A DNA stretch of 64,000 nucleotides from NCBI GenBank assembly GCA_032768795.1, contig CP136491.1:310001-374000 (forward strand), given 5' to 3'. This DNA is from Tremella fuciformis (lineage: Eukaryota > Basidiomycota > Tremellomycetes > Tremellales > Tremellaceae). Below, piece after piece: positions 1,681 to 11,836 of the stretch. The position numbers were made by a program, and so were the translations under genes. The first letter of the stretch is position 1; the number at the start of each line of letters is the position of its first letter. The notes under the pieces were generated by a model that worked only from the letters and a program-made list of their open reading frames with translations, was not told the origin of the DNA and searched no databases.

Positions 1681-2402
1681 CTAAGTCGACTCGTAGTAAT
1701 ACACATAGTTGCTCTGCGTGCACTCCTGGGCTGTCCCGGAATTGAACGCGTCGGTGTAGCACCAATACGTCGAGGTGTCCGTCCTATAAGAGATCATAAA
1801 TTGAGGGGCATTGTCGGTGTTTGCGTGAGTCGCGCACTGCGCCACAGCATCCGAGTCGGACGACGCGACGAGATTGTAGAATTCTGTGTCGGTCGTTCCG
1901 GCTGGAGCATGTCAGTTGCGGTCATGGCTGACGGGGAGCCGGAGCCCGACTCGAGACTCACAGTAGCCGCCATAACACGCGACCCAGTAGAAACCACTGG
2001 TATTCGGCGGCGGGTTGGCGGACAGCCGGGCTTTCGGTGCACCTGCCCGTCACCTCCTCTCCAAGCTGCGCTCCAGGGACGCGGGGGGCTTACTGTGAAC
2101 GCGGGAGGGGTCGTATAGCCTCACAGGGGCCCGGATGGGCAGTCCTCTGCCCACTCAGCGCTGTGCGCACGTATCACATACAGACGACGTACCGCTTGAA
2201 CCTGTCGGAGTTCGTCAACACCCTGCCTGCGTCAGCGTCCCTCCCGCCAGTGAACAAGATGGGCGGCTCACCGTGTGCCTTCTCTCTTCTCCGGCGCAGC
2301 AGAGTCGGGCCATGACATGGACCGGGCGGCGTCGACGCTGCCTGAGGCTCCGAGCGCCGTCCCGGCCAGTGTCAGAGTCAGAAGCGTGCCGAAGAACAAC
2401 AT
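1681..2402 (-). CDS. RLYDP-family secreted proprotein, array copy 1
   Basis: Unrecognised small secreted protein, about 171 aa. Exons on the minus strand: 2402-2272, 2222-2193 (30-nt microexon), 2146-2094 (53 nt), 2042-1962 and 1901-1681; the sum is 172 codons. The N-terminus (MLFFGTLLTLTLAGTALGAS) is a clear signal peptide, followed by SMSWPD and a Lys-Arg pair. The microexon encodes a decapeptide ending NSDRFKR. Next come GLPIRAPVRLYDPSRVHS and APKARLSANPPP. The C-terminal domain has four cysteines in the contexts VACYGG, AQCATH, YWCYT and QECTQ, and ends near NYVYYY. Signal peptide, basic pairs and cysteines suggest secretion, Kex2-like cleavage and disulfides. It is the last member of the array and converges on ima1. 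The GCYGG opening recalls WSC domains, but only four cysteines are present. Confidence 0.8.
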
Positions 2403-2560
2403 GTTGGATGTCAGTGGGTGAATCTGTGACCGTCACCAGTCGTATTGATCTTCTTTGTACCATCGCCGAAGCCTCGTCGTGAAGCGACAAGCATAAACAT
2501 GGCTTCTTCGTTCTGGCCCGGACAAACTCAAGATCGTACGGACTGGCCCAGCGAGTGACG

Positions 2561-2610
2561 CATGTTCTGTCGATGGTCTTGGCGGATTAGAGTTAGTCCG
2601 ACAGAACATG
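2561..2610. repeat. Perfect 12-bp inverted repeat with 26-bp spacer
   Basis: CATGTTCTGTCG at 2561-2572 is matched exactly by its reverse complement at 2599-2610. It lies in the 519-bp spacer (2403-2921) between array copies 1 and 2, upstream of copy 1. It could be a hairpin, a dimer-type factor-binding site or a relic of a mobile element. I see no open reading frame attached to it. Confidence 0.6.
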
Positions 2611-2921
2611 ACATGTCGCACGGGATGGTCGTTGTGGCTCCGGATTAGACTTTTTGTTTTCTCATGGGTGGCGTCAGACTACTGGGGTGATTGTCAGGTT
2701 CGGCTGCAGCTCGGATCCCGCGAATGAGTGGACATGACGAATGGATGGGCAGTCCAGCGACGAGCGGCGCAGGAGGCGTGGAGCGTGTCCTTCCCCGGGC
2801 TAGCGTTGACGAGCTTGCAAGCCGAGAGTCATACGGCCTGGACAGTCTTCAAGTCCCAGAATGCGGAGCTGCATAAGTACTACGCATGCCGCACTCTGTG
2901 CTCCTCGAATCCTCGATGGTC

Positions 2922-3605
2922 CTACACCCTGTACGGCAACGTCTCGTACCAGGCGTAATTATCCTCGGTGCAGTCCTGGAAGCTGCCTGCGCCATACGCG
3001 TACGTCCAACACGAGTACGTCTCGACGCTCGAGTCGTACTGGATGACCAGAGTCACCGTGTTGTCGGCCTTGGCATACGACGAGCACTGCGCCAGCGCGT
3101 CGTCGTCGTCCTCGGCGGTGATGGAGTAGAAGGTTGTCTGGGACACCTCGGCTATGCCGCCCCAACAGCCCTGCGAGTAGTATCCGTTGGCCGTGTCGGG
3201 CGGTGGGGTAGCGGAGAGCCGAGCCTTGGGCGCGCCTGAGCTTGAGTGGCACTACCTCGTTTGAGCTTACGAAGCTTACTGTGGACTCTGGAGGGGTCGT
3301 ACAGCCTCTCGGGGACCCGTGGTGGTAGTCCTCTGTCCGTCAGCTTTGAGTCCAAAGTGATTGGCTGTGGCTCCGCCCGGGCACGCACCTTCTGACACGA
3401 TCAGCGTTGCTCAGCTCTCTGAGCGTCAGTCCCCCTTTTCTTGGTCACCTCTGGTGCATCACATAGCCCACCTTCTTGCTTGTGGTGTCGACGCCCGTGC
3501 CATGTCAGGCCATGACCGCGGGCTGGCATGATTTGAAGCAGGCAGCGCTAACGCCGTATGCGCCCAAGTCAAAGCGAGTACAGTGATTGCCTTTGCGAGC
3601 AGCAT
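2922..3605 (-). CDS. RLYDP-family secreted proprotein, array copy 2 (one intron fewer)
   Basis: About 176 aa. Exons 3605-3472, 3418-3389 (30-nt microexon), 3332-3280 (53 nt) and 3235-2922; the sum is 177 codons. The signal peptide is MLLAKAITVLALTWAHTALA, followed by PRSWPD. Two Arg-Arg pairs flank the microexon decapeptide (QARR, then ELSNADRVRR), so excision of this segment by a Kex2-like protease is plausible. GLPPRVPERLYDPSRVHS and APKARLSATPPP follow. The four cysteines sit in GCWGG, AQCSSY, YSCWT and QDCTE, with NYAWY near the end. The intron found in the other copies after the first-cysteine exon is missing here, and the two exons are fused in frame. No function is recognised. Confidence 0.8.
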
Positions 3606-4321
3606 GTTGTTCAGCAGCAAGTCAAGGAGAGCCATTATTTGCCATGTCATCTGTTGATGCCCTCCAGCGGCTAGCCGCGGGGTCGACCTCGTCCGACCTC
3701 CTCCAGCTCTTATCGACTCCGGTTCCGCACCTGTGACATCAGTTCCTAAGAGGCTGAGGGTCAAAGCGGCTGACCGGGCACATGGTTATGCCAAGCATTG
3801 CCTTGAAGCAGGACCGTCGAGGCAGACATGACATGGCGCGCGGGAGTGAATTTGTGGCGTCCGCTTGTCGCCGACAATATAGTAATGCGCCGGATGTCCG
3901 TGTGTGCCCGCATCGTCGCGTCGTTTGTCTATTGTTCTCCAGGCATGTGGTTGAGCTTAACTTGCTCCACGCCGTGTCAGACTTCCCAAAGCACGACGAC
4001 GTAAGTGCTGGCGCACGGACGGGTTAGTGAACCGAAAGGCTCTCGCCGCGGTTCGATCACCTTCTTGCACTTCATCGTTGTATCGCACGGCTTCGCTCAC
4101 CTATACGTCTCTAAAGTGGTTCCTCAATCACAAAGACCGTCAGATAGGTAGGCATATATTGGTGATTAATACCCACGCCAAGGAAGCACCAACCTGAACT
4201 GAGGCCATGTCCGCATTGCATATCTGTTCTTCTCTACATTCAAAGCTTCGCCCTGATGTAAAGTACCCATTGTTCGAGTCACACTTACCCTCGTAGACAT
4301 ATCAGATGAGATAGATGTTGA
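3606..4321. other. Array spacer without a supported gene
   Basis: This 716-bp stretch between copy 2 and the Gly-rich candidate contains no reading frame with recognisable features. It presumably holds the promoter of copy 2, which is transcribed leftward from 3605, and the 3' end of the Gly-rich candidate. Confidence 0.5.
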
Positions 4322-4900
4322 TCACCCGCCAGTGTTAGCCAGAGTGATAGAACTGGTGCCAGATGCCGAGAAATAGACATAGTTTCCGCCGCCTCCGCCC
4401 CCAGCGCAGTGGTCGCCGCCGTGGCCCCCGCTATGGCCGCCTCTCCCTCTTGCTTCGCCATACTGAGCAGAAACACCGCCTCCGCCCCCAAAGCCTCCCG
4501 CCCCGCCATTGATACCTGTGAGCAACCGGCGAGCACCCCCGTCCACGTCGGGATGATCTTCTGACTGATCTGATTGGTGAGTCAGTCAGGTAAGGGACCT
4601 TGGAGCAAATTACCCACACGGATGAGACATGGTCGAGCTCATTGACAAGACAGATTCGCTCAAATGTCACCCGTTGTCCTTCGTCAATGTAGACAAGCTC
4701 GGGACCGTCAGACAAGTGAACCTAGGACGCTACGTCTTGATCCGTGAGTTCAGTACGAGGGAGAGGCAATGTCGAATACCGGGAACGATACTTGTCGTTC
4801 TCACAGACGATGCTTCCTTGGCGACCAGAGGTGTGTTTGCCTTGCCCCATCATAGGAAGTAGGAAGACCCAGGTCATCTCCGCAGCAGATTCGAAGGGCC
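4322..4900 (-). CDS. Possible small glycine-rich protein gene inside the array
   Basis: The minus strand shows an exon-like stretch with GPELVYIDEGQRVTFERI and VNELDHVSS. After an intron near 4560-4613 it is followed by a strongly Gly-rich terminal exon (GINGGAGGFGGGGG, then GGHSGGHGGD) ending YVYFSASGTSS..LANTGG and stop at 4322. The composition resembles Gly-rich beta domains such as the ALK/LTK Gly-rich region, but that is only a resemblance. The 5' end is unresolved: an upstream segment near 4760-4900 with the sequence GKHTSGRQGSIVCEND may belong to it, but I could not join the frames with confidence. It is not obviously an RLYDP paralog. The end coordinate at 4900 is approximate. Confidence 0.3.
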
Positions 4901-5002
4901 CATGTCTGATGCAAATGACCCGCGAACGCATTCCGGCCTATTGACCATGTCCAACTACACCACAAATTCGAGCGTCCAGGTCACCACGTCCCGTCCATGT
5001 CC

Positions 5003-5699
5003 TCATGAAGCAGAGTACCAAGCATAGTTGTCGCTCGTGCAATCCTCCTCCGTGCCTCCAGGTGTAGCTCCAGTCCAACATACCCAGTCCTCATTGTCCG
5101 TGTCGTAATATATCACAAAGTCATCAAAGCCTTCCCCAGTAGCTTGAGCGGCACAGGCGGTCACGGCAGTACCATCGCCGCCATCCGAAAAAACATGAAT
5201 GGTGAACTTTTGTCCGTCGCTCGCCGTGGCTGAAAGTGATTAGCTGTCGTCAAAACAGGTAGAACTCACTCAGGTCGGTCGAGCAGTACTGCAAGTCATA
5301 ACCGATCTCTGATGTGGGGGGCGGGGTGGAAGACAGTCGGGCTTTGGGGGCGCCTGCGATTGAGCCATCCCACTGATCGATTACAGGCGCCGTGACTCAC
5401 TGTGGATCCGTGAAGGGTCGTAGAGCCTTTTTGGCGCTCTGAGCGGCATCCCTCTGTCAATCAGCTCTACTTTAATCATGTCTTGAGCTTCACTCACCGC
5501 CTTAGCCGCTCCGAATTATTGGGTGCCCTGGTCGGGTCAGCAGATCTTCTGTGCGCGCAAGCCGTGGGACTTGCTCTGCCTCCCGCTTCGCTGGGACGAC
5601 CGTGCCAGGATACGAGATCGTGCGAGCTTGGGAAGATCTGGCTGCACCGAGTGCAAAGCCTGCCACGGCCATCGTCAACGCGAGGGCTCTGCCCGCCAT
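5003..5699 (-). CDS. RLYDP-family secreted proprotein, array copy 3 (KREAEA processing signature)
   Basis: About 172 aa. Exons 5699-5575, 5527-5498 (30 nt), 5453-5401 (53 nt), 5353-5270 and 5229-5003; the sum is 173 codons. Intron 1 has a GC donor (GCAAGT), the only way I found to keep the family frame. The signal peptide begins MAGRALALTMAVAGFALGA. Splicing joins PAKREAE to APNN, giving Lys-Arg-Glu-Ala-Glu-Ala, the Kex2/Ste13-type signature known from yeast alpha-factor precursors. Then come NNSERLRR, GMPLRAPKRLYDPSRIHS and APKARLSSTPPP. Cysteine contexts are QYCSTD, TACAAQ, WVCWTG and EDCTSD, ending NYAWYSAS. A TATA-like element lies 157 bp upstream of the ATG. Confidence 0.8.
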
Positions 5700-6171
5700 G
5701 CTCCTTGCCAGCTGCACCTGCAACGATTTGCACCGAGAAAGAGCGAAAGGGTTGTTTTTGCTATGGCGAGACCCCCTGCGGTCACGCTTCGGCGATCCAG
5801 TCTTATCATGTTGCGACAACTACTCGTAACCTACGTGGAGCAAGCGGGCAAGGAGTTTATAGTTTCTAGAGGGGTCCGAGCGGAGAGGTCAAAGGTGATA
5901 TGTCGTCAAGTGAAGGGCAGAGACGGAGCGGACACTTGGGGTTCCGGATAACCTTGTCGTCCTGCGCAGCTACAACGCATTCTAGTCGTGGTCTCCGAAC
6001 AGTTACGAGAGTACTGTACTCTATGCAGACACTCCAAGTACTCGATGTGCATCATATCCTCGGGAGTTCCAACCGACACCCGCGTACTGGTACCTGTCCA
6101 CGATCCCGGCTGTGCACACCTTCCAACAATCGCCCTGCCCCTACCCGCCCTTGAGTGATGACCGCAGAAGG
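5700..6171. other. Array spacer, promoter side of copy 3
   Basis: About 470 bp without a supported reading frame between copies 3 and 4. Apart from the TATA-like element I see nothing distinctive. Confidence 0.5.
5856..5861 (-). promoter_or_regulatory. TATA-like element upstream of array copy 3
   Basis: TATAAA reads on the minus strand in the context AACTATAAACTCC, 157 bp upstream of the copy 3 ATG at 5699. The distance is plausible for a core promoter with a short 5' UTR. I did not see an equally clear TATA box in front of every other copy. Confidence 0.35.
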
Positions 6172-6924
6172 TCACTCAGCGTCGCTGTACCAAGCAATGT
6201 TGTATTGGGCACACGGTTGCGAGCTGCCAGCCCCGTGCGTGGGTCCCGAGCAGAGATACTTCTGTGTGGATTGCTGAATGACGACGAAATCGCTGTAGGA
6301 GTTCGAGGCTGCCCATGTCGCGCATGCCAATGCAGCATCCTCGCTGCCGGCGGCAGTGATAGATGTGCTTTCCGTATTGGTACCCGCTATATGGCGGTCA
6401 GCCGCCCACACCCCGGTTTTGTCCCCGCCTGTCCGAAGGCAGGTTGCCCAAGAGCAGCTTTGACTCACAAGCACTGCCATAGCAGCCTTGGAGTGTGTAC
6501 CCGTCGACCGTCGCTGGGGCGGGAGACAATCTCGCCTGGGGTGCACCTAAACGTTGGCTGGTACATGTCTCGAGGGGGCTTACTGTGAATCCTGGAAGGG
6601 TCGTACAACCTTGTGGGCGTTCGGAGGGGCAATCCTCTGAAAGGTCAACTCCGTCCTCCCAAAAACGCATTGACGGCATGCGCCCCTGGCATGGCACTCC
6701 ACGTACCTCCTGACTCGTTCGGCATTCGCAAGTACGCTGTACGGATCAGCTCATCCTCGAGGTAGCGCTCTTTCGTACCGTTGTCTCGGCTTGGCGACTA
6801 GCCGCACCCTTTCTGGCCATAGCAGAGTCTCGAGATCGGCATATCTGGCGGCATGGGGTATGTGCCTCGCCAGCCCGCCGAAGACACTTGTGAAGAACAC
6901 CAGCAAGACCAGGAGAAGCGCCAT
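6172..6924 (-). CDS. RLYDP-family secreted proprotein, array copy 4
   Basis: About 173 aa. Exons 6924-6779, 6736-6707 (30 nt), 6636-6584 (53 nt), 6546-6469 and 6386-6172; the sum is 174 codons. The signal peptide starts MALLLVLLVFFTSVFGG. A Trp-Pro motif (ETLLWPERV) follows, then the microexon decapeptide ending NAERVRR. After this come GLPLRTPTRLYDPSRIHS and APQARLSPAPAT. The cysteine domain has GCYGSAC (an extra cysteine beside the family's first), LACATW, YLCSGP and QPCAQY. It ends IAWYSDAE. Secreted and probably Kex2-processed by inference; no database function is recognised. Confidence 0.8.
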
Positions 6925-7440
6925 TGGATCTTTGCTGCCAAGAGCTGAGAAAGAAACAAAGGCATAGGAATGCATATTCTTTCTCCAGGTTCGGAGACGC
7001 TGCTACCTCGATGGCACAGAGTTCCTTGACTCCCGCCGTGCTCCGTGAAACAACTCTAGTTGTGCGGGAATGCCAAGCCCGAACGGCTGTTTACGTTACG
7101 CCATCGCCGCGTGCACGGACCTGACCTGGTGTGGCGTTGACCCGCGGGCAACTTCGGTCCATCGGGTAGGCGGTGTAGTGGCGCCAACAGCTCCGGCGCT
7201 TCCGATAGGTGAGTTCGGGTGAGGCTACCCCGAGACGTCCCATCCTTGACACCACCGCTCTCATCAAGACAATCTGCTGAAGCCAACGACCATCAGTGAA
7301 GCTTTGATACCTTGAGAGGCCTCCTGTCTGGCCCTCCGATCATAGTGTCCATGATAACATATCTTTCTCTATAAGGGCCGCAATTTTCATAATCATGATA
7401 CCCTTGGAACCTGTCCTTACTCCCTCTGCGTCGACGGTTA
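6925..7440. other. Array spacer
   Basis: 516 bp between copies 4 and 5. No supported gene or structured element seen. Confidence 0.5.
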
Positions 7441-8189
7441 TCAGTTGGACGTGTACCCTGCATAGTCGGTCGTGGTGCAAGTCTCTTCTGTTATTGATGC
7501 TCCCGTCAAGGGCCCTGCGCAGGTGTAAGTGCCGGCGGAGCTGCCGGCGAAAACGATAATATCGGTGAACGAGTGGGACGCCGCCCATGTGACGCATTGT
7601 GATACGGCGTCGGCGGGGGACTCGGCGGAGACCACTGTGTAACTTCCGCCCTGTCCACCTGGGCTCTTGTCAGCGGCAGGTGTGTGTGTCGGACGAAGGC
7701 TTACTAGCGGCATCGTAGCAGCCCTCAAAAGTCCAGCCGTTTGCCGATGCGGGGGCCGGTGAGAGTCGCGCCTGGGGAGCACCTTCATGTCAGCCCCAGC
7801 CGCGCTTTAACGAGGTCGCCTGCTCACTATGTAGTCGCGTGGGATCATATAGCCTCTCAGGCTTGCTGGGAGGAAGTCCTCTAAGAGATCAGCTCTCGCA
7901 TCGAACACCCTACAATCCGGGTCTCGCTTGAGAGGTCCCCTCGCCTTACCAGCATGACTTCACTCACCTTTTGAGCCTTTCGGCATTGGGCAGCTCGCTG
8001 CGAGTATCAATAAAAAAAGACGCTGCTAGCACTCTGTGCTTACCGGCGGCTCCCCGTCGATACCGGCAGAGCGATCTGTGGCCAAACAATGGTGGCAGAG
8101 TCGACGTGTCCTTCGGCGGTGACGATGGCAGGGGCAGCAAGGACCCCGAGGCCCATCGCCAGGAAGATGAGCGCAGAAAGCAGAAACAT
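7441..8189 (-). CDS. RLYDP-family secreted proprotein, array copy 5
   Basis: About 174 aa. Exons 8189-8044, 7997-7968 (30 nt), 7880-7828 (53 nt), 7782-7705 and 7658-7441; the sum is 175 codons. The signal peptide begins MFLLSALIFLAMGLGVLAAP. TAEGHVDSATIVWP follows, a stretch almost shared with the broken copy at 10.4 kb. Arg-Arg precedes and Lys-Arg ends the microexon decapeptide (SRR, then ELPNAERLKR). Then come GLPPSKPERLYDPTRLHS and APQARLSPAPAS. Cysteines lie in EGCYDAA, SQCVTW, YTCAGP and ETCTTT. The C-terminus ends YAGYTSN instead of the usual NYAWY, a local divergence. Confidence 0.8.
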
Positions 8190-8676
8190 CGGGTCGTCGT
8201 TGACGTCTGGATACAAAGCACACCGCGGTCTCCAACAACAGATGTGAATGCAAGAGCACTCCCGGTTTCTTCTCTCGGAGTTCCATATCCACTGCTGTCG
8301 TTGGGTCCAGTAGTGTTTCACGAATGTCTGGAAGATTTCCAGAGCTTCCCTGTTCCTCTCCGCTCACCGGAGATTCTCGTGCCCGTGCTCAACATGGCGT
8401 ATCTCGTGCCGTGGTGCCAAGCATGACTGTCAGTAAGAAATGCACGGGGTTCGCTCGGAGCGAAGGAGGCCGACATATATGACCCAATAGTTGGGGATCG
8501 GCGCCGCAGAAACACTCCGTGGAGTTGGGTCGGCCGTGACCGCGACTGGTGCAGCATGGAGAAACGCTCGTCGTCCATCAAACAATCAAGTCCGCTCTAC
8601 GTAGGTCGGGCGCGTATACTGCGCATATACTGTACCAACATACTCCCCATTGCATTCCGCCACGCACGCCATCGTT
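8190..8676. other. Array spacer
   Basis: 487 bp between copies 5 and 6. I see no supported gene. An AT-richer CATATATG sits near 8475, but its role is unclear. Confidence 0.45.
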
Positions 8677-9501
8677 TTATGACTCGGCACTGTACCACCC
8701 GTAGTTGTACAAGGTACACGGTTGTGGAGTGGTCTCGTCACCGGTCACGTCGGACATGCAGTAGTAGGTAAGAGTGCCCTCAGAGGGGCCTCCGCCGTTG
8801 GTGAAGACGATAAAATCGGCATATGAATTAGGCTGGGCCCACGCAGCGCATTGCGTCGCGGCGTCGGTGCTAGACACGGCACTGATTTTGAGGATATCGG
8901 GATCGCCCCTACCTGTTTACTCGTCAGCTACGTCAAGAGCATCGTATGAGATAGTTGCGATACGGCACGCGTTCGCACAAGGGGTCCCGGCTAGCACCTG
9001 GGGAACGCTTACTGGTGACTCCGTAGCATCCCTGGAACGTATACCCGTCAATGGACGCCGGAGGTGTGGGCGATATTCGCGCCTGCGGCGCACCTGGGCG
9101 TCGGCCCGCTTCTCATTTCGACACGGGACGGTGCCTCACTGTGTATCCGCGAGGGGTCATATAGCCTCGCAGGCGCTCTAGGAGGAAGTCCCCTGGGGCT
9201 TCAGCTTCCTAGCCCCTCAAATAAGAGCGGCGGGCCCGAGTGAAGCCACACTTCGTGGGCAGGACTAATCCCACCTTTTGAGCCGGTCCGCGTTTGGCAC
9301 TTGTCTGAGAAAATCAGCGAAGCATTCATATCTGCCAAGTGCCCAAGCCTACCGTGTTCTCAGTTCCTGGGTCGGCGGGACGACCAGCGGCCACAGCGTC
9401 GGCGGATAGTCCACCTGTTCTTTGGCGGTCGAAGTGATGACGCCGGCCAAACCTCCCACGGCCATCACGAGAATCACCAGCGCGCCGGAGAGGAGGAGCA
9501 T
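8677..9501 (-). CDS. RLYDP-family secreted proprotein, array copy 6
   Basis: About 182 aa, the longest member. Exons 9501-9353, 9304-9275 (30 nt), 9192-9140 (53 nt), 9093-9013 and 8912-8677; the sum is 183 codons. Intron 4 is about 100 bp, twice the usual length. The signal peptide starts MLLLSGALVILVMAVGG. VDYPPTLWPLVVP carries the Trp-Pro motif. The microexon decapeptide is QVPNADRLKR. GLPPRAPARLYDPSRIHS and APQARISPTPPA follow. Cysteine contexts are QGCYGVT, TQCAAW, YYCMSD and QPCTLY, ending NYGWYSAES. No function is recognised; secretion and dibasic processing are inferred from sequence. Confidence 0.8.
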
Positions 9502-10033
9502 GAGTAGGTACGACCGCGAGAACGACTTGGGAGAAGTCGATAAATTCCTTGCTGGATCCCACAAAGTCTTCCTTCCCGTCTCCAGACAACAACTGGATTA
9601 TTGCCGTGTGTCCGAGCTTACTTGCTCATCTCCGCTGCTGGAAGCTGCTGTACCTCTAGAAGTCACCGTGCCTGGGCACGGAGGGAGTGCCAAGCCCGAC
9701 TGTCGGTAAGTTAAGGGCTGCACGGAGAGCTTCCGTGAGAGACATTACCCATGACTCGGGCCTCGGCTCTGGACTCTCCAATAAACCAGTTCAGATGCGT
9801 TTTGGTCTGCCTGACATCGTCCAGAGCCTCCAGATAGATCCGAGCGAGCTCTCAGTCATCCGACCGAAGGACTACAAGCAAGAGCATTCTCGCGCCCCAC
9901 AGATCAATGACCCTCGCTTCATCAAGAATACCATTCGTTCCACCTGAGGGGGTTATACATTTCCATGCAGAGACAAGCTCTCGTGTGTACACAAAGCACA
10001 TCTAACAAGGAGAACGAGTTCGCACACAAAAAG
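9502..10033. other. Array spacer
   Basis: 532 bp between copy 6 and the broken copy. No supported gene. Confidence 0.45.
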
Positions 10034-10395
10034 CTATGCCGAGCTGTTCCACGCATCGTTTGTCAAGCTACAGTCCTCGGCATCTTCCGCTATGCCAGAC
10101 TCGGGTCCCCAGCAGTAATAATAGTATTCGTCGTCGCCTGCCGATTGCCCAGTGTCGTAGATGATGAAGTTGGGATACGATTGAGAGGCAGCCCAGGTGG
10201 CGCACTGACACAGCGTCGTCATTGCTGGGAGCCGCAACCTTGCTGCTAGTCCGTTCTGGGTTGGACAAAAGACTGGCCATGCTCTGGCCACTCCATAACA
10301 GCGGCGTCTGCGTGACCCTCGGCAGTGAAAGTCGTTCGAGCAGAGGCGCTGCCGAGTGTGCCAGCTAGGATCGCGAACACCGCTGGGACGATCAT
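10034..10395 (-). pseudogene. Broken RLYDP-family copy: exon 1 joined to the last exon, middle lost, frameshift
   Basis: From the ATG at 10395 the minus strand encodes a normal family exon 1: a signal peptide starting MIVPAVFAILAGTLGSASA, then TAEGHADAAVMEWPE. It runs to a stop after VQPRTD. Directly beyond, without the microexon, the RLYDP exon or the APKARLS exon, lies the family's last exon: SNDDAVS, then in another frame QCATWAASQSYPNF, YYYYCWGP and EDCSLTNDAW, ending at 10034. The two parts are out of frame by what looks like loss of two bases (CA) before QCATW. Three exons are therefore missing and the frame is broken. It could still express the short exon-1 peptide, but a decayed paralog is the simpler reading. 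Confidence 0.75.
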
Positions 10396-11028
10396 CTTGT
10401 GGTCTGTTGCTCGTATGTGATCTCTCGTTTACGAAACGACGGTGGAAAGCGCTTGTTCATAGACAGTCTGTCACCACGTCCACAGACCGGATCTTGGGGG
10501 TGTGTTTGGGCGCAACATCTCGACTGCGCTTTGAACGGGTCCGTCATCCAGACCTCTGGAAGGCTTCGCTCCGGGCATCGAGACCAACATGCTTAACGGT
10601 CTGTCGGGACCTGCGCCATCTCCGCACTGGCGGCCGGCTCTTCGGTATCACAGGCCGAGAAAACTGGCATAGCACATGTGACGGTCAAGCCGACTGCGCC
10701 TTCTATCTCCTTCTGTCCCGTCGGATGAGGTACGTTCTACGCGGCTGTATTCGCCTCCGCTGATTCCGAGACGAAGCTAGGTGCCTTGCAAAGCTCGTCG
10801 GCCGGGTGTCATGTTGACGTTGTCACAGCTGACGCGTTCAGCAACGCCGAGCGCAGGAAGGGGATCCGCGACAGTCGAACCCATCAAAACATACAACAGC
10901 GTTGTGTGCCGCTCATGACACCGTGGCAAATGAGTGGCTCGAAGCGAGCTCCGCCTCTCGCCCCAGCATGTCCTGTGCATGTGTAGAGGGGTACGATGTG
11001 CAAAGTACAGTGGCATAACGACGAGCTA
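10396..11028. other. Array spacer
   Basis: 633 bp between the broken copy and copy 7. There are open frames on both strands, but none shows a signal peptide, family motif or convincing splice structure. Confidence 0.4.
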
Positions 11029-11836
11029 TCAGGGAAGATGGTACCACGCGTTGTTGGTCGATGTACATGATTGCTGCAGGGTCCCTGACATTGGGCCTTC
11101 GCACACAAACCAGGTTTCTCCCGAGACCGGGTCGACCGATAAAGTATCGTACACGATAAAGTCATACATCCCCGCGCCAGAGGCCCAGGACGCACAGGCA
11201 ACGGCGCCGTCGGCGGTCGTTGCGGCGAGCACGGATTCGGAGACGGCCACGCCGGTGGTACCCTCTGGTGCGTCAGCATTCGTCCCAGTGCGGGGGTGTA
11301 CTGTATCTATCTATCTTGGAAGCGCTCCTTGCCGGATGTAGGCAGCAAAAGGACTTACGTGCACCGGCAAAACAGCCTTGGAAGGCGTAACCTCCAGCCG
11401 TCAAGGGAGCTGGCGACAGGCGCGCTTTTGGGGCACCTGTGGTCAGTGCATTGTATTGTAGCCGGCATGGAGCACCGGCCGAAGACCCACTATGCACACG
11501 CGAGGGGTCGTATAGCCTGGCAGGCTTCGGGAGCGGAAGACCTCTGATATCTCAACTTCGTACTCGCCTTTCCAAGCAGGGTCGATGCCGTCCCACTACG
11601 AGCTCGATGGAATGCTTGAAACAACGACCTACCTCGCGAACCGCTCGGCATTGGACAGCTCACTGAGCGTATCAGCGCCTCGACATTCGTCTTTAGTTGG
11701 TGCAACAAACTCACTGTGACTCCCGCTTGATCACGGGTCTTATAGTCTCTGGAAAGCTATAGAGTGCCGCTCGCTCAACTGATCTCGCGGACACCATCAT
11801 GCCCACACCCCTGGGCCAGCTCCAAAGAGCTTTCAT
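11029..11836 (-). CDS. RLYDP-family secreted proprotein, array copy 7 (first gene of the array)
   Basis: About 172 aa. Exons 11836-11715, 11662-11633 (30 nt), 11543-11491 (53 nt), 11436-11359 and 11264-11029; the sum is 173 codons. The start at 11836 (MKALWSWPRGVG) was chosen because exon 1 then has the family length. The hydrophobic core is weaker than in other copies, and an in-frame upstream ATG at 11923 is possible. ALYSFPETIRP replaces the Trp-Pro motif. A Lys-Arg pair (VIKRES) precedes the microexon (ELSNAERFAR, where Ala-Arg replaces the usual basic pair). Then come GLPLPKPARLYDPSRVHS and APKARLSPAP. Cysteine contexts are QGCFAGA, VACASW, FVCEGP and QSCTST, ending NNAWYHLP. Confidence 0.72.

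What the first reader, a model, noticed from the sequence alone, without database searches (positions are those of the whole stretch)
1681..11836. Tandem array of seven intact, unrecognised secreted proprotein paralogs on one strand
All copies share signal peptide, Trp-Pro motif, basic-pair decapeptide, GLPxRxPxRLYDPSR block, APKARLS linker and a four-cysteine domain, yet diverge strongly elsewhere. Head-to-tail expansion with divergence is typical of secreted effectors, pheromone-like peptides or surface ligands under diversifying selection. The first cysteine context (GCYG) recalls WSC domains but the rest does not fit well. I know of no described family with the RLYDPSR block.
Basis: partly seen in the sequence, partly recalled or inferred. 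Interest (0 to 1): 0.92.

Follow-up and report, generated by a model that had tools for sequence, protein, structure and literature searches.

The report
Fungal secreted-protein array with shared leader
A fungus carries a row of seven related genes for small secreted proteins that join a leader found in many mushroom-group fungi to an unrecognised four-cysteine domain predicted to fold like known cell-surface binding domains, so the array looks like a local burst of a wider protein design.

Summary
The array is real. Seven gene models lie on the minus strand of 1681-11836, plus a broken copy (10034-10395). In all seven, exon 2 is 30 nt and exon 3 is 53 nt. Spliced products of two dispersed paralogs match public proteins, one letter for letter. 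Ten further members lie elsewhere in this 28.1 Mb genome; the array copies form one tree group.

Two corrections. First, the "RLYDPSR block" is not private: it is a local form of a leader, roughly NxxRxxR|GLxPxxPxR, at 14 other places in this genome and in Tremellomycetes, Dacrymycetes and Agaricomycetes, ahead of other C-termini where these could be read. Its cleavage-like motif is R-x-x-R, not a basic pair. Second, the four-cysteine domain has no Pfam match, but two AlphaFold models match yeast Wsc1's WSC domain best, in lists dominated by PAN/apple entries; Foldseek alone is not significant.

Best reading: kexin-processed, secreted PAN-like binding proteins. Cleavage and ligand are inferred. 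Diversifying selection cannot be tested: synonymous sites are saturated.

The parts
1681..2402 (-). copy A: exons 2402-2272, 2222-2193, 2146-2094, 2042-1962, 1901-1681; 171 aa
   Evidence: splice model; aligned
2922..3605 (-). copy B: exons 3605-3472, 3418-3389, 3332-3280, 3235-2922; 176 aa; its four-cysteine domain lies in one exon and was used for the structure model
5003..5699 (-). copy C: 172 aa, five exons; first intron modelled as GC-AG; KR-EAEA ahead of the leader motif
6172..6924 (-). copy D: 173 aa, five exons
7441..8189 (-). copy E: 174 aa, five exons
8677..9501 (-). copy F: 182 aa, five exons
10034..10395 (-). copy G: broken eighth copy; exon 1 and part of the last exon remain, exons 2-4 missing, frame broken
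   Evidence: read by eye
11029..11836 (-). copy H: 172 aa, five exons; weak signal peptide
3389..3418 (-). exon 2 of copy B as example: 30-nt exon for the decapeptide with the R-x-x-R motif (same length in all seven array copies)
3280..3332 (-). exon 3 of copy B as example: 53-nt exon for GLPxxPxRLYDPSRxH (same length in all seven array copies)
2922..3235 (-). last exon of copy B: APKARLS linker and four-cysteine domain, predicted PAN/apple-like fold

Best explanation
The array is a lineage-specific expansion of small secreted proteins made as prepro-proteins. Step 1 (predicted; weak for H): a signal peptide brings the chain into the secretory pathway. Step 2 (leader homology shown; cleavage inferred): a leader module shared with other Agaricomycotina secreted proteins, with R-x-x-R before Gly-Leu, is cut by a Golgi kexin, so that the mature protein begins GLPxxPxRLYDPSR. 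Step 3 (fold predicted): the chain ends in a four-cysteine domain with a PAN/apple-type fold, closest to the WSC domain of yeast Wsc1; its cysteines lie on strand 1, on the helix, on a later strand and after it, so two of Wsc1's four disulfides could remain. Step 4 (inferred): the mature, unanchored protein sits in the cell wall, capsule or medium and binds a glycan or protein, as PAN and WSC domains do; tandem duplication and loss vary the domain while the leader stays constrained.
Confidence: 0.45

Rival explanations
1. The leader is not mainly a cleavage site but a sorting or folding module that a dedicated factor recognises, which is why conservation runs across the R|G junction into GLxPxxPxR and why it is shared by otherwise different secreted proteins.
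For: The stretch after the junction is more conserved than the decapeptide. The leader spans the junction without an intron in 14 other places of the genome and in other species. C-terminal parts that could be read fall into separate groups. The gene at C7:980k keeps NAER and GMPxxxP but not the P1 Arg.
Against: P1 and P4 basic residues are nearly invariant in the family, which fits a kexin or furin-type site (recalled). In the P0002 model the region has one short helix and otherwise low confidence. No recognising factor is known.
Confidence: 0.3
2. Peptide signalling: the decapeptide or the GLP...HS stretch is released as a pheromone-like ligand and the four-cysteine domain is a carrier.
For: In most copies basic residues stand on both sides of the decapeptide; copy C has KR-EAEA ahead of it, resembling the yeast alpha-factor spacer (recalled).
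Against: Similar stretches precede other kinds of secreted protein, which a specific ligand would not. No repeats as in Kex2-processed repeat proteins. The supposed carrier is itself a predicted folded domain with four invariant cysteines.
Confidence: 0.1
3. Host-directed effectors under diversifying selection.
For: Secreted, small, tandem, divergent.
Against: Synonymous sites are saturated, so positive selection cannot be seen, and mean pN is below mean pS in all regions. The leader occurs in fungi such as Calocera, Flagelloscypha and Saitozyma, which I recall as wood or soil fungi. The source species and its lifestyle are unknown here.
Confidence: 0.1
4. The domain is a degenerate true WSC domain that has lost half its cysteines.
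For: Best structural match is Wsc1 in both models; the four cysteines could match two Wsc1 bridges.
Against: No WSC hit in any of 17 domains, although 37 of 38 WSC places listed in the same genome pass the cut-off, none at loci of this family; hhalign probability 0.1 of 100 against 15 WSC domains of this genome; no CGG in 17 domains.
Confidence: 0.15

Closest known systems
WSC domain of yeast Wsc1 (PDB 7pz2; Pfam PF01822)
   Different: Four instead of eight cysteines, no CGG motif, no sequence-profile match; the protein ends just after the domain, with no stem or membrane anchor in the models; made with a leader.
PAN/apple domains (HGF N domain, plasminogen, factor XI, apicomplexan lectins)
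   Same: By my reading of titles, 38 of the first 40 structural rows are entries with PAN, apple or WSC domains (17 of them HGF entries); the other two are thyroglobulin.
   Different: No Pfam PAN hit; only one cysteine in the helix; single stand-alone domain.
Kex2-processed repeat proteins (KEPs; PMC7329392, passages read)
   Same: Signal peptide and kexin-type sites.
   Different: No tandem repeats between sites; one decapeptide per protein; a predicted folded C-terminal domain.
RXLR-EER effectors of oomycetes (PMC11754927, abstract and section list seen)
   Same: Logic only: signal peptide, short conserved leader, cleavage before secretion, then diverse C-terminal domains.
   Different: Different motif and different kingdom, no evidence for host delivery; not a member.
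IGY-motif small secreted proteins of Dikarya (PMC4367982, title and start of abstract seen in a search listing)
   Same: Expanded fungal small secreted protein family named for a conserved N-terminal motif.
   Different: A different motif by name; not compared at sequence level.

Membership tests
WSC domain (PF01822) | sequence-profile match above the curated cut-off | tested here: not met
   0 of 7 proteins and 0 of 17 domains, while 37 of 38 places listed elsewhere in the same genome pass
WSC domain (PF01822) | eight cysteines in four disulfides | tested here: not met
   exactly four cysteines in 17 of 17 domains; eight in Wsc1 (PMC9024836, passages)
WSC domain (PF01822) | CGG motif in loop L5 | tested here: not met
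   absent from 17 of 17 domains
WSC domain (PF01822) | PAN/apple-type fold | tested here: met
WSC domain (PF01822) | disulfide from strand 1 to loop L5 | tested here: inconclusive
   cysteines lie on strand 1 and after the last long strand, but no coordinates were available to measure a bridge
PAN/apple domain | central sheet with one helix | tested here: met
   by prediction: E19-38 H43-56 E61-67 E72-86 E93-97 and structural rows
PAN/apple domain | two helix-to-sheet disulfides | tested here: not met
   one cysteine in the predicted helix, so at most one such bridge
PAN/apple domain | sequence-profile match | tested here: not met
   no PAN family among Pfam hits up to E 5 and E 10; HMMER's filters drop most matches above about 0.1
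Kex2-processed repeat proteins | at least three tandem repeats of at least 8 aa between Kex2 sites | tested here: not met
   one decapeptide per protein in the models; definition from PMC7329392 passages
Hydrophobin or cerato-platanin | family profile match | tested here: not met
   no such hit in Pfam
RXLR effectors | RXLR motif followed by EER | tested here: not met
   RXLR in 0 of 7 array proteins and EER in 0 of 7; RXLR in 1 of 17 family leaders

The most novel reading that the evidence does not exclude
The RGLPP-type leader is a general, undescribed secretory module of Agaricomycotina, comparable in logic to RXLR-EER or PEXEL leaders: one dedicated processing or sorting step reads a signal of about 27 residues and is shared by many otherwise different secreted protein families. 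The array shows the module reused on a reduced PAN-like domain that then diversified in tandem.
Probability: 0.3. Interest if true: 0.8.

Novelty: new variant of a known kind. Interest (0 to 1): 0.6.

Why it matters
It gives a sequence handle on a class of fungal secreted proteins that current family libraries seem to miss: of the nine public leader proteins that I scanned (of 21 found), none had a Pfam hit over a cut-off. If the leader is one shared maturation signal, mature N-termini of many basidiomycete secreted proteins become predictable, and a single kexin mutant would test it. The four-cysteine domain would be a reduced PAN/WSC-type fold, useful for asking how few disulfides that fold needs and what fungal extracellular binding domains recognise.

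Tried and rejected
Pfam on the seven proteins, on nine public leader proteins and on the 17 domains gave nothing convincing (no hit over a cut-off; eight families, best E 0.015). PDB by sequence profile: best E 0.41, taken as chance. Profile comparison with 15 WSC domains of the same genome: no relation. Foldseek alone: no significant match. Codon tests for diversifying selection were dropped because synonymous sites are saturated. Literature: searches (open-access PMC only). The strings RGLPPL, ARGLPP, KRGLPP, RGLPPK, RGLPPMPP and RLYDPSR occur in 0 papers, so 'undescribed' rests on these searches only. My recollection that Agaricomycete secreted proteins carry such a leader was the lead; one search is the test, and there the two named Agaricomycete hits are weak on their own (Tulasnella E 3.8e-3, Flagelloscypha E 0.26). 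The pattern was mis-written (one codon short) and its zero means nothing; the corrected pattern gave 11 matches against 0 for the control.

Limits: searches scored only the 7,997 and 7,993 candidates sharing most words, and (346 candidates) did not return P0001, a true member, so range and counts are lower bounds. The species is not identified; a Tremellomycete origin is only suggested by the hits. Rows dropped: 14 C-terminal parts under 40 aa and P0016 (missed by the motif filter) were left out, and C5x and some other exon-level readings may run past a splice site. In one search the divergent genes at C1:1286k and C7:980k and the broken copy G were not included. One search left out C4:1146k. 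For 6 of the 14 places with other C-termini (four at C4:1397-1400k, C1:2652k, C3:1483k) only the N-terminal piece was read. The background included L045, which holds a divergent, intron-split family member.
Full report
OBSERVATION. The finding's sequence description holds. On the minus strand of 1681-11836 seven genes follow one another head to tail. I modelled their introns by hand from three-frame translations. Each encodes 171-182 residues: signal peptide; short pro region with an aromatic-Pro motif; a decapeptide such as ELSNADRVRR; GLPxxPxRLYDPSRxHS; APKARLS; and a four-cysteine domain. The decapeptide is exactly one 30-nt exon and the GLP...H block exactly one 53-nt exon in 7 of 7 copies. 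Copy B lacks the last intron, copy C needs a GC-AG intron, and copy H has a poor signal peptide. An eighth copy, G, at 10034-10395 is broken: exons 2-4 are missing and the frame is interrupted (read by eye).

EXTERNAL SUPPORT FOR THE MODELS. A search with the alignment of the seven proteins (A1) against 5.8 billion proteins returned two, P0001 and P0002. P0001 is identical, 131 of 131 residues, to the spliced product of the paralog at C4:1146k of this genome across three introns; P0002 matches the paralog at C5:2140.7k in 168 of 171 residues across four introns. Both lie on contigs under 1 kb and read through the introns, so they look like transcript assemblies of this species or a very close one (inference). 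No array copy itself has such a match.

GENOME-WIDE FAMILY. The window is part of a 28,140,229-base genome in 11 contigs. Searches with the domain, a motif pattern, copy E and a leader query, followed by exon-level modelling, give ten further members: C5 (four), C4 (two), C7 (two), C8 and C1. The 53-nt exon, between AG and GT, recurs in 9 of 9 of those printed. The 30-nt exon recurs in 7 of 10; by eye it is 27 nt at C1:2187k, fused to exon 1 at C4:1157k and open at C4:1146k. Outside the array the block is more variable: GLP or GMP in 7 of 17 leaders (the array copies), exact RLYDPSR in 11 of 17. Two divergent relatives are read by eye at C1:1286k and C7:980k. A tree of 17 members puts the seven array copies on one side of a branch with support 95/98 (9 of 14 inner branches are unresolved): a local tandem expansion, with loss visible in G.

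THE LEADER IS SHARED. Copy E also hit places whose similarity covers only the decapeptide and GLP block. A 36-residue leader query gives 32 matches in the genome. By my sorting these are 17 family members, one divergent member (C7:980k) and 14 places with other C-termini, among them a tandem trio at C6:2147-2151k and four at C4:1397-1400k; for 6 of the 14 only the N-terminal piece was read. The DNA pattern for N-[A/G]-[E/D/Q/H]-[R/S]-x-x-[R/S]-G-[L/F]-P matches 11 places against 0 for the reversed control. A profile of 16 leaders (A2) found 20 public proteins at E <= 1, P0001 and P0002 among them. Named sources of the other 18 are Calocera cornea (two) and C. viscosa, Saitozyma, three Kwoniella, Tremella mesenterica, Tulasnella (E 3.8e-3) and Flagelloscypha (E 0.26); the rest are unnamed. 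Lineages looked up for Flagelloscypha, Saitozyma, Calocera and Tulasnella place them in Agaricomycetes, Tremellomycetes, Dacrymycetes and Agaricomycetes; Kwoniella and Tremella are placed from knowledge. As a cleaner test I built a profile from the 17 four-cysteine leaders only: 30 of 30 other leader proteins score 17.4 to 46.2 bits, while 1,925 background sequences (600 shuffled) reach at most 7.5. These 30 had been found by leader similarity and 14 of them are too short to show a C-terminus, so the test shows homology of the leader, not frequency. Of 32 C-terminal parts of at least 40 aa, the 17 four-cysteine domains cluster together and the other 15 fall into seven groups with no link to them at E <= 0.01 (dropped rows are under Tried and rejected).

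THE SITE. Across 16 of the 17 family members P1 is basic in 16, P4 is Arg in 15, and P2 is basic in only 10. This fits R-x-x-R|G, a kexin or furin-type site (recalled), better than a dibasic site. One place with a P domain typical of kexins is present (C3:1059k). Cleavage itself is not shown. Against a pure cleavage role, the 17 residues after the junction are more conserved than the decapeptide (75% against 52% in the array, 72% against 49% in all 17), and the gene at C7:980k lacks the P1 Arg. A recognition role therefore stays open and is my first rival.

FUNCTION AND SELECTION. WSC-domain proteins of Serendipita indica are described as glucan-binding and enriched in its extracellular matrix (PMC9252488, passages), and PAN domains as mediating protein and carbohydrate interactions (PMC9024836, passages). 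I therefore favour a secreted binding protein of wall, capsule or matrix. This is inference. Region by region, mean identity is 25% in exon 1, 67% in exons 2-3, 56% in exon 4 and 30% in the last exon; mean pS is 0.69-0.78 and mean pN 0.56, 0.20, 0.29 and 0.51. Synonymous sites are saturated, so diversifying selection can be neither shown nor excluded.

VERDICT. A real array, correctly seen, of an unrecognised family. The part thought unique is a shared leader, and the part thought not to fit WSC is predicted to share its fold core. New variant of a known kind; interest 0.6.

Noticed in passing
exon 2 of all seven copies, e.g. window 3389-3418: The 30-nt exon has the same phase (2) at both ends, so skipping it would keep the frame and join exon 1, which ends in R in A, B, D, E and F, directly to GLP. 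Alternative splicing could switch the site.
   Followed up: no
window 5699-5498, copy C: Reads KR-EAEA ahead of the leader motif if the GC-AG intron is right, like the spacer of yeast alpha-factor (recalled).
   Followed up: no
L056 (C7:980100-981000): Divergent leader gene reading NAERMAAGMPINKPRNLYSP: the P1 Arg of the supposed cleavage site is missing; later exons look by eye like the four-cysteine domain.
   Followed up: partly
L052 (C6:2147300-2151300) and L062 (C1:5652300-5653700): A second leader-bearing family, in tandem at C6, with a shared stretch like RTSNT..T.Y.AEVAY; relatives P0003 and P0004 in public data.
   Followed up: partly
L053 (C4:1397300-1400800): Four tandem leader places; only N-terminal pieces read, C-termini unknown.
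   Followed up: no
window 4285-4585, minus strand: Glycine-rich open stretch between copies B and C, of unknown nature.
   Followed up: no
G000 C1:7508595-7510832, C7:78369-82589 and others: 37 WSC-domain places over the Pfam cut-off are listed in the genome, several within long open frames that hold many WSC domains.
   Followed up: partly
L036 (C4:1146040-1146280): The upstream exon of the paralog that matches P0001 could not be joined; P0001 starts at an internal Met just before the leader.
   Followed up: no
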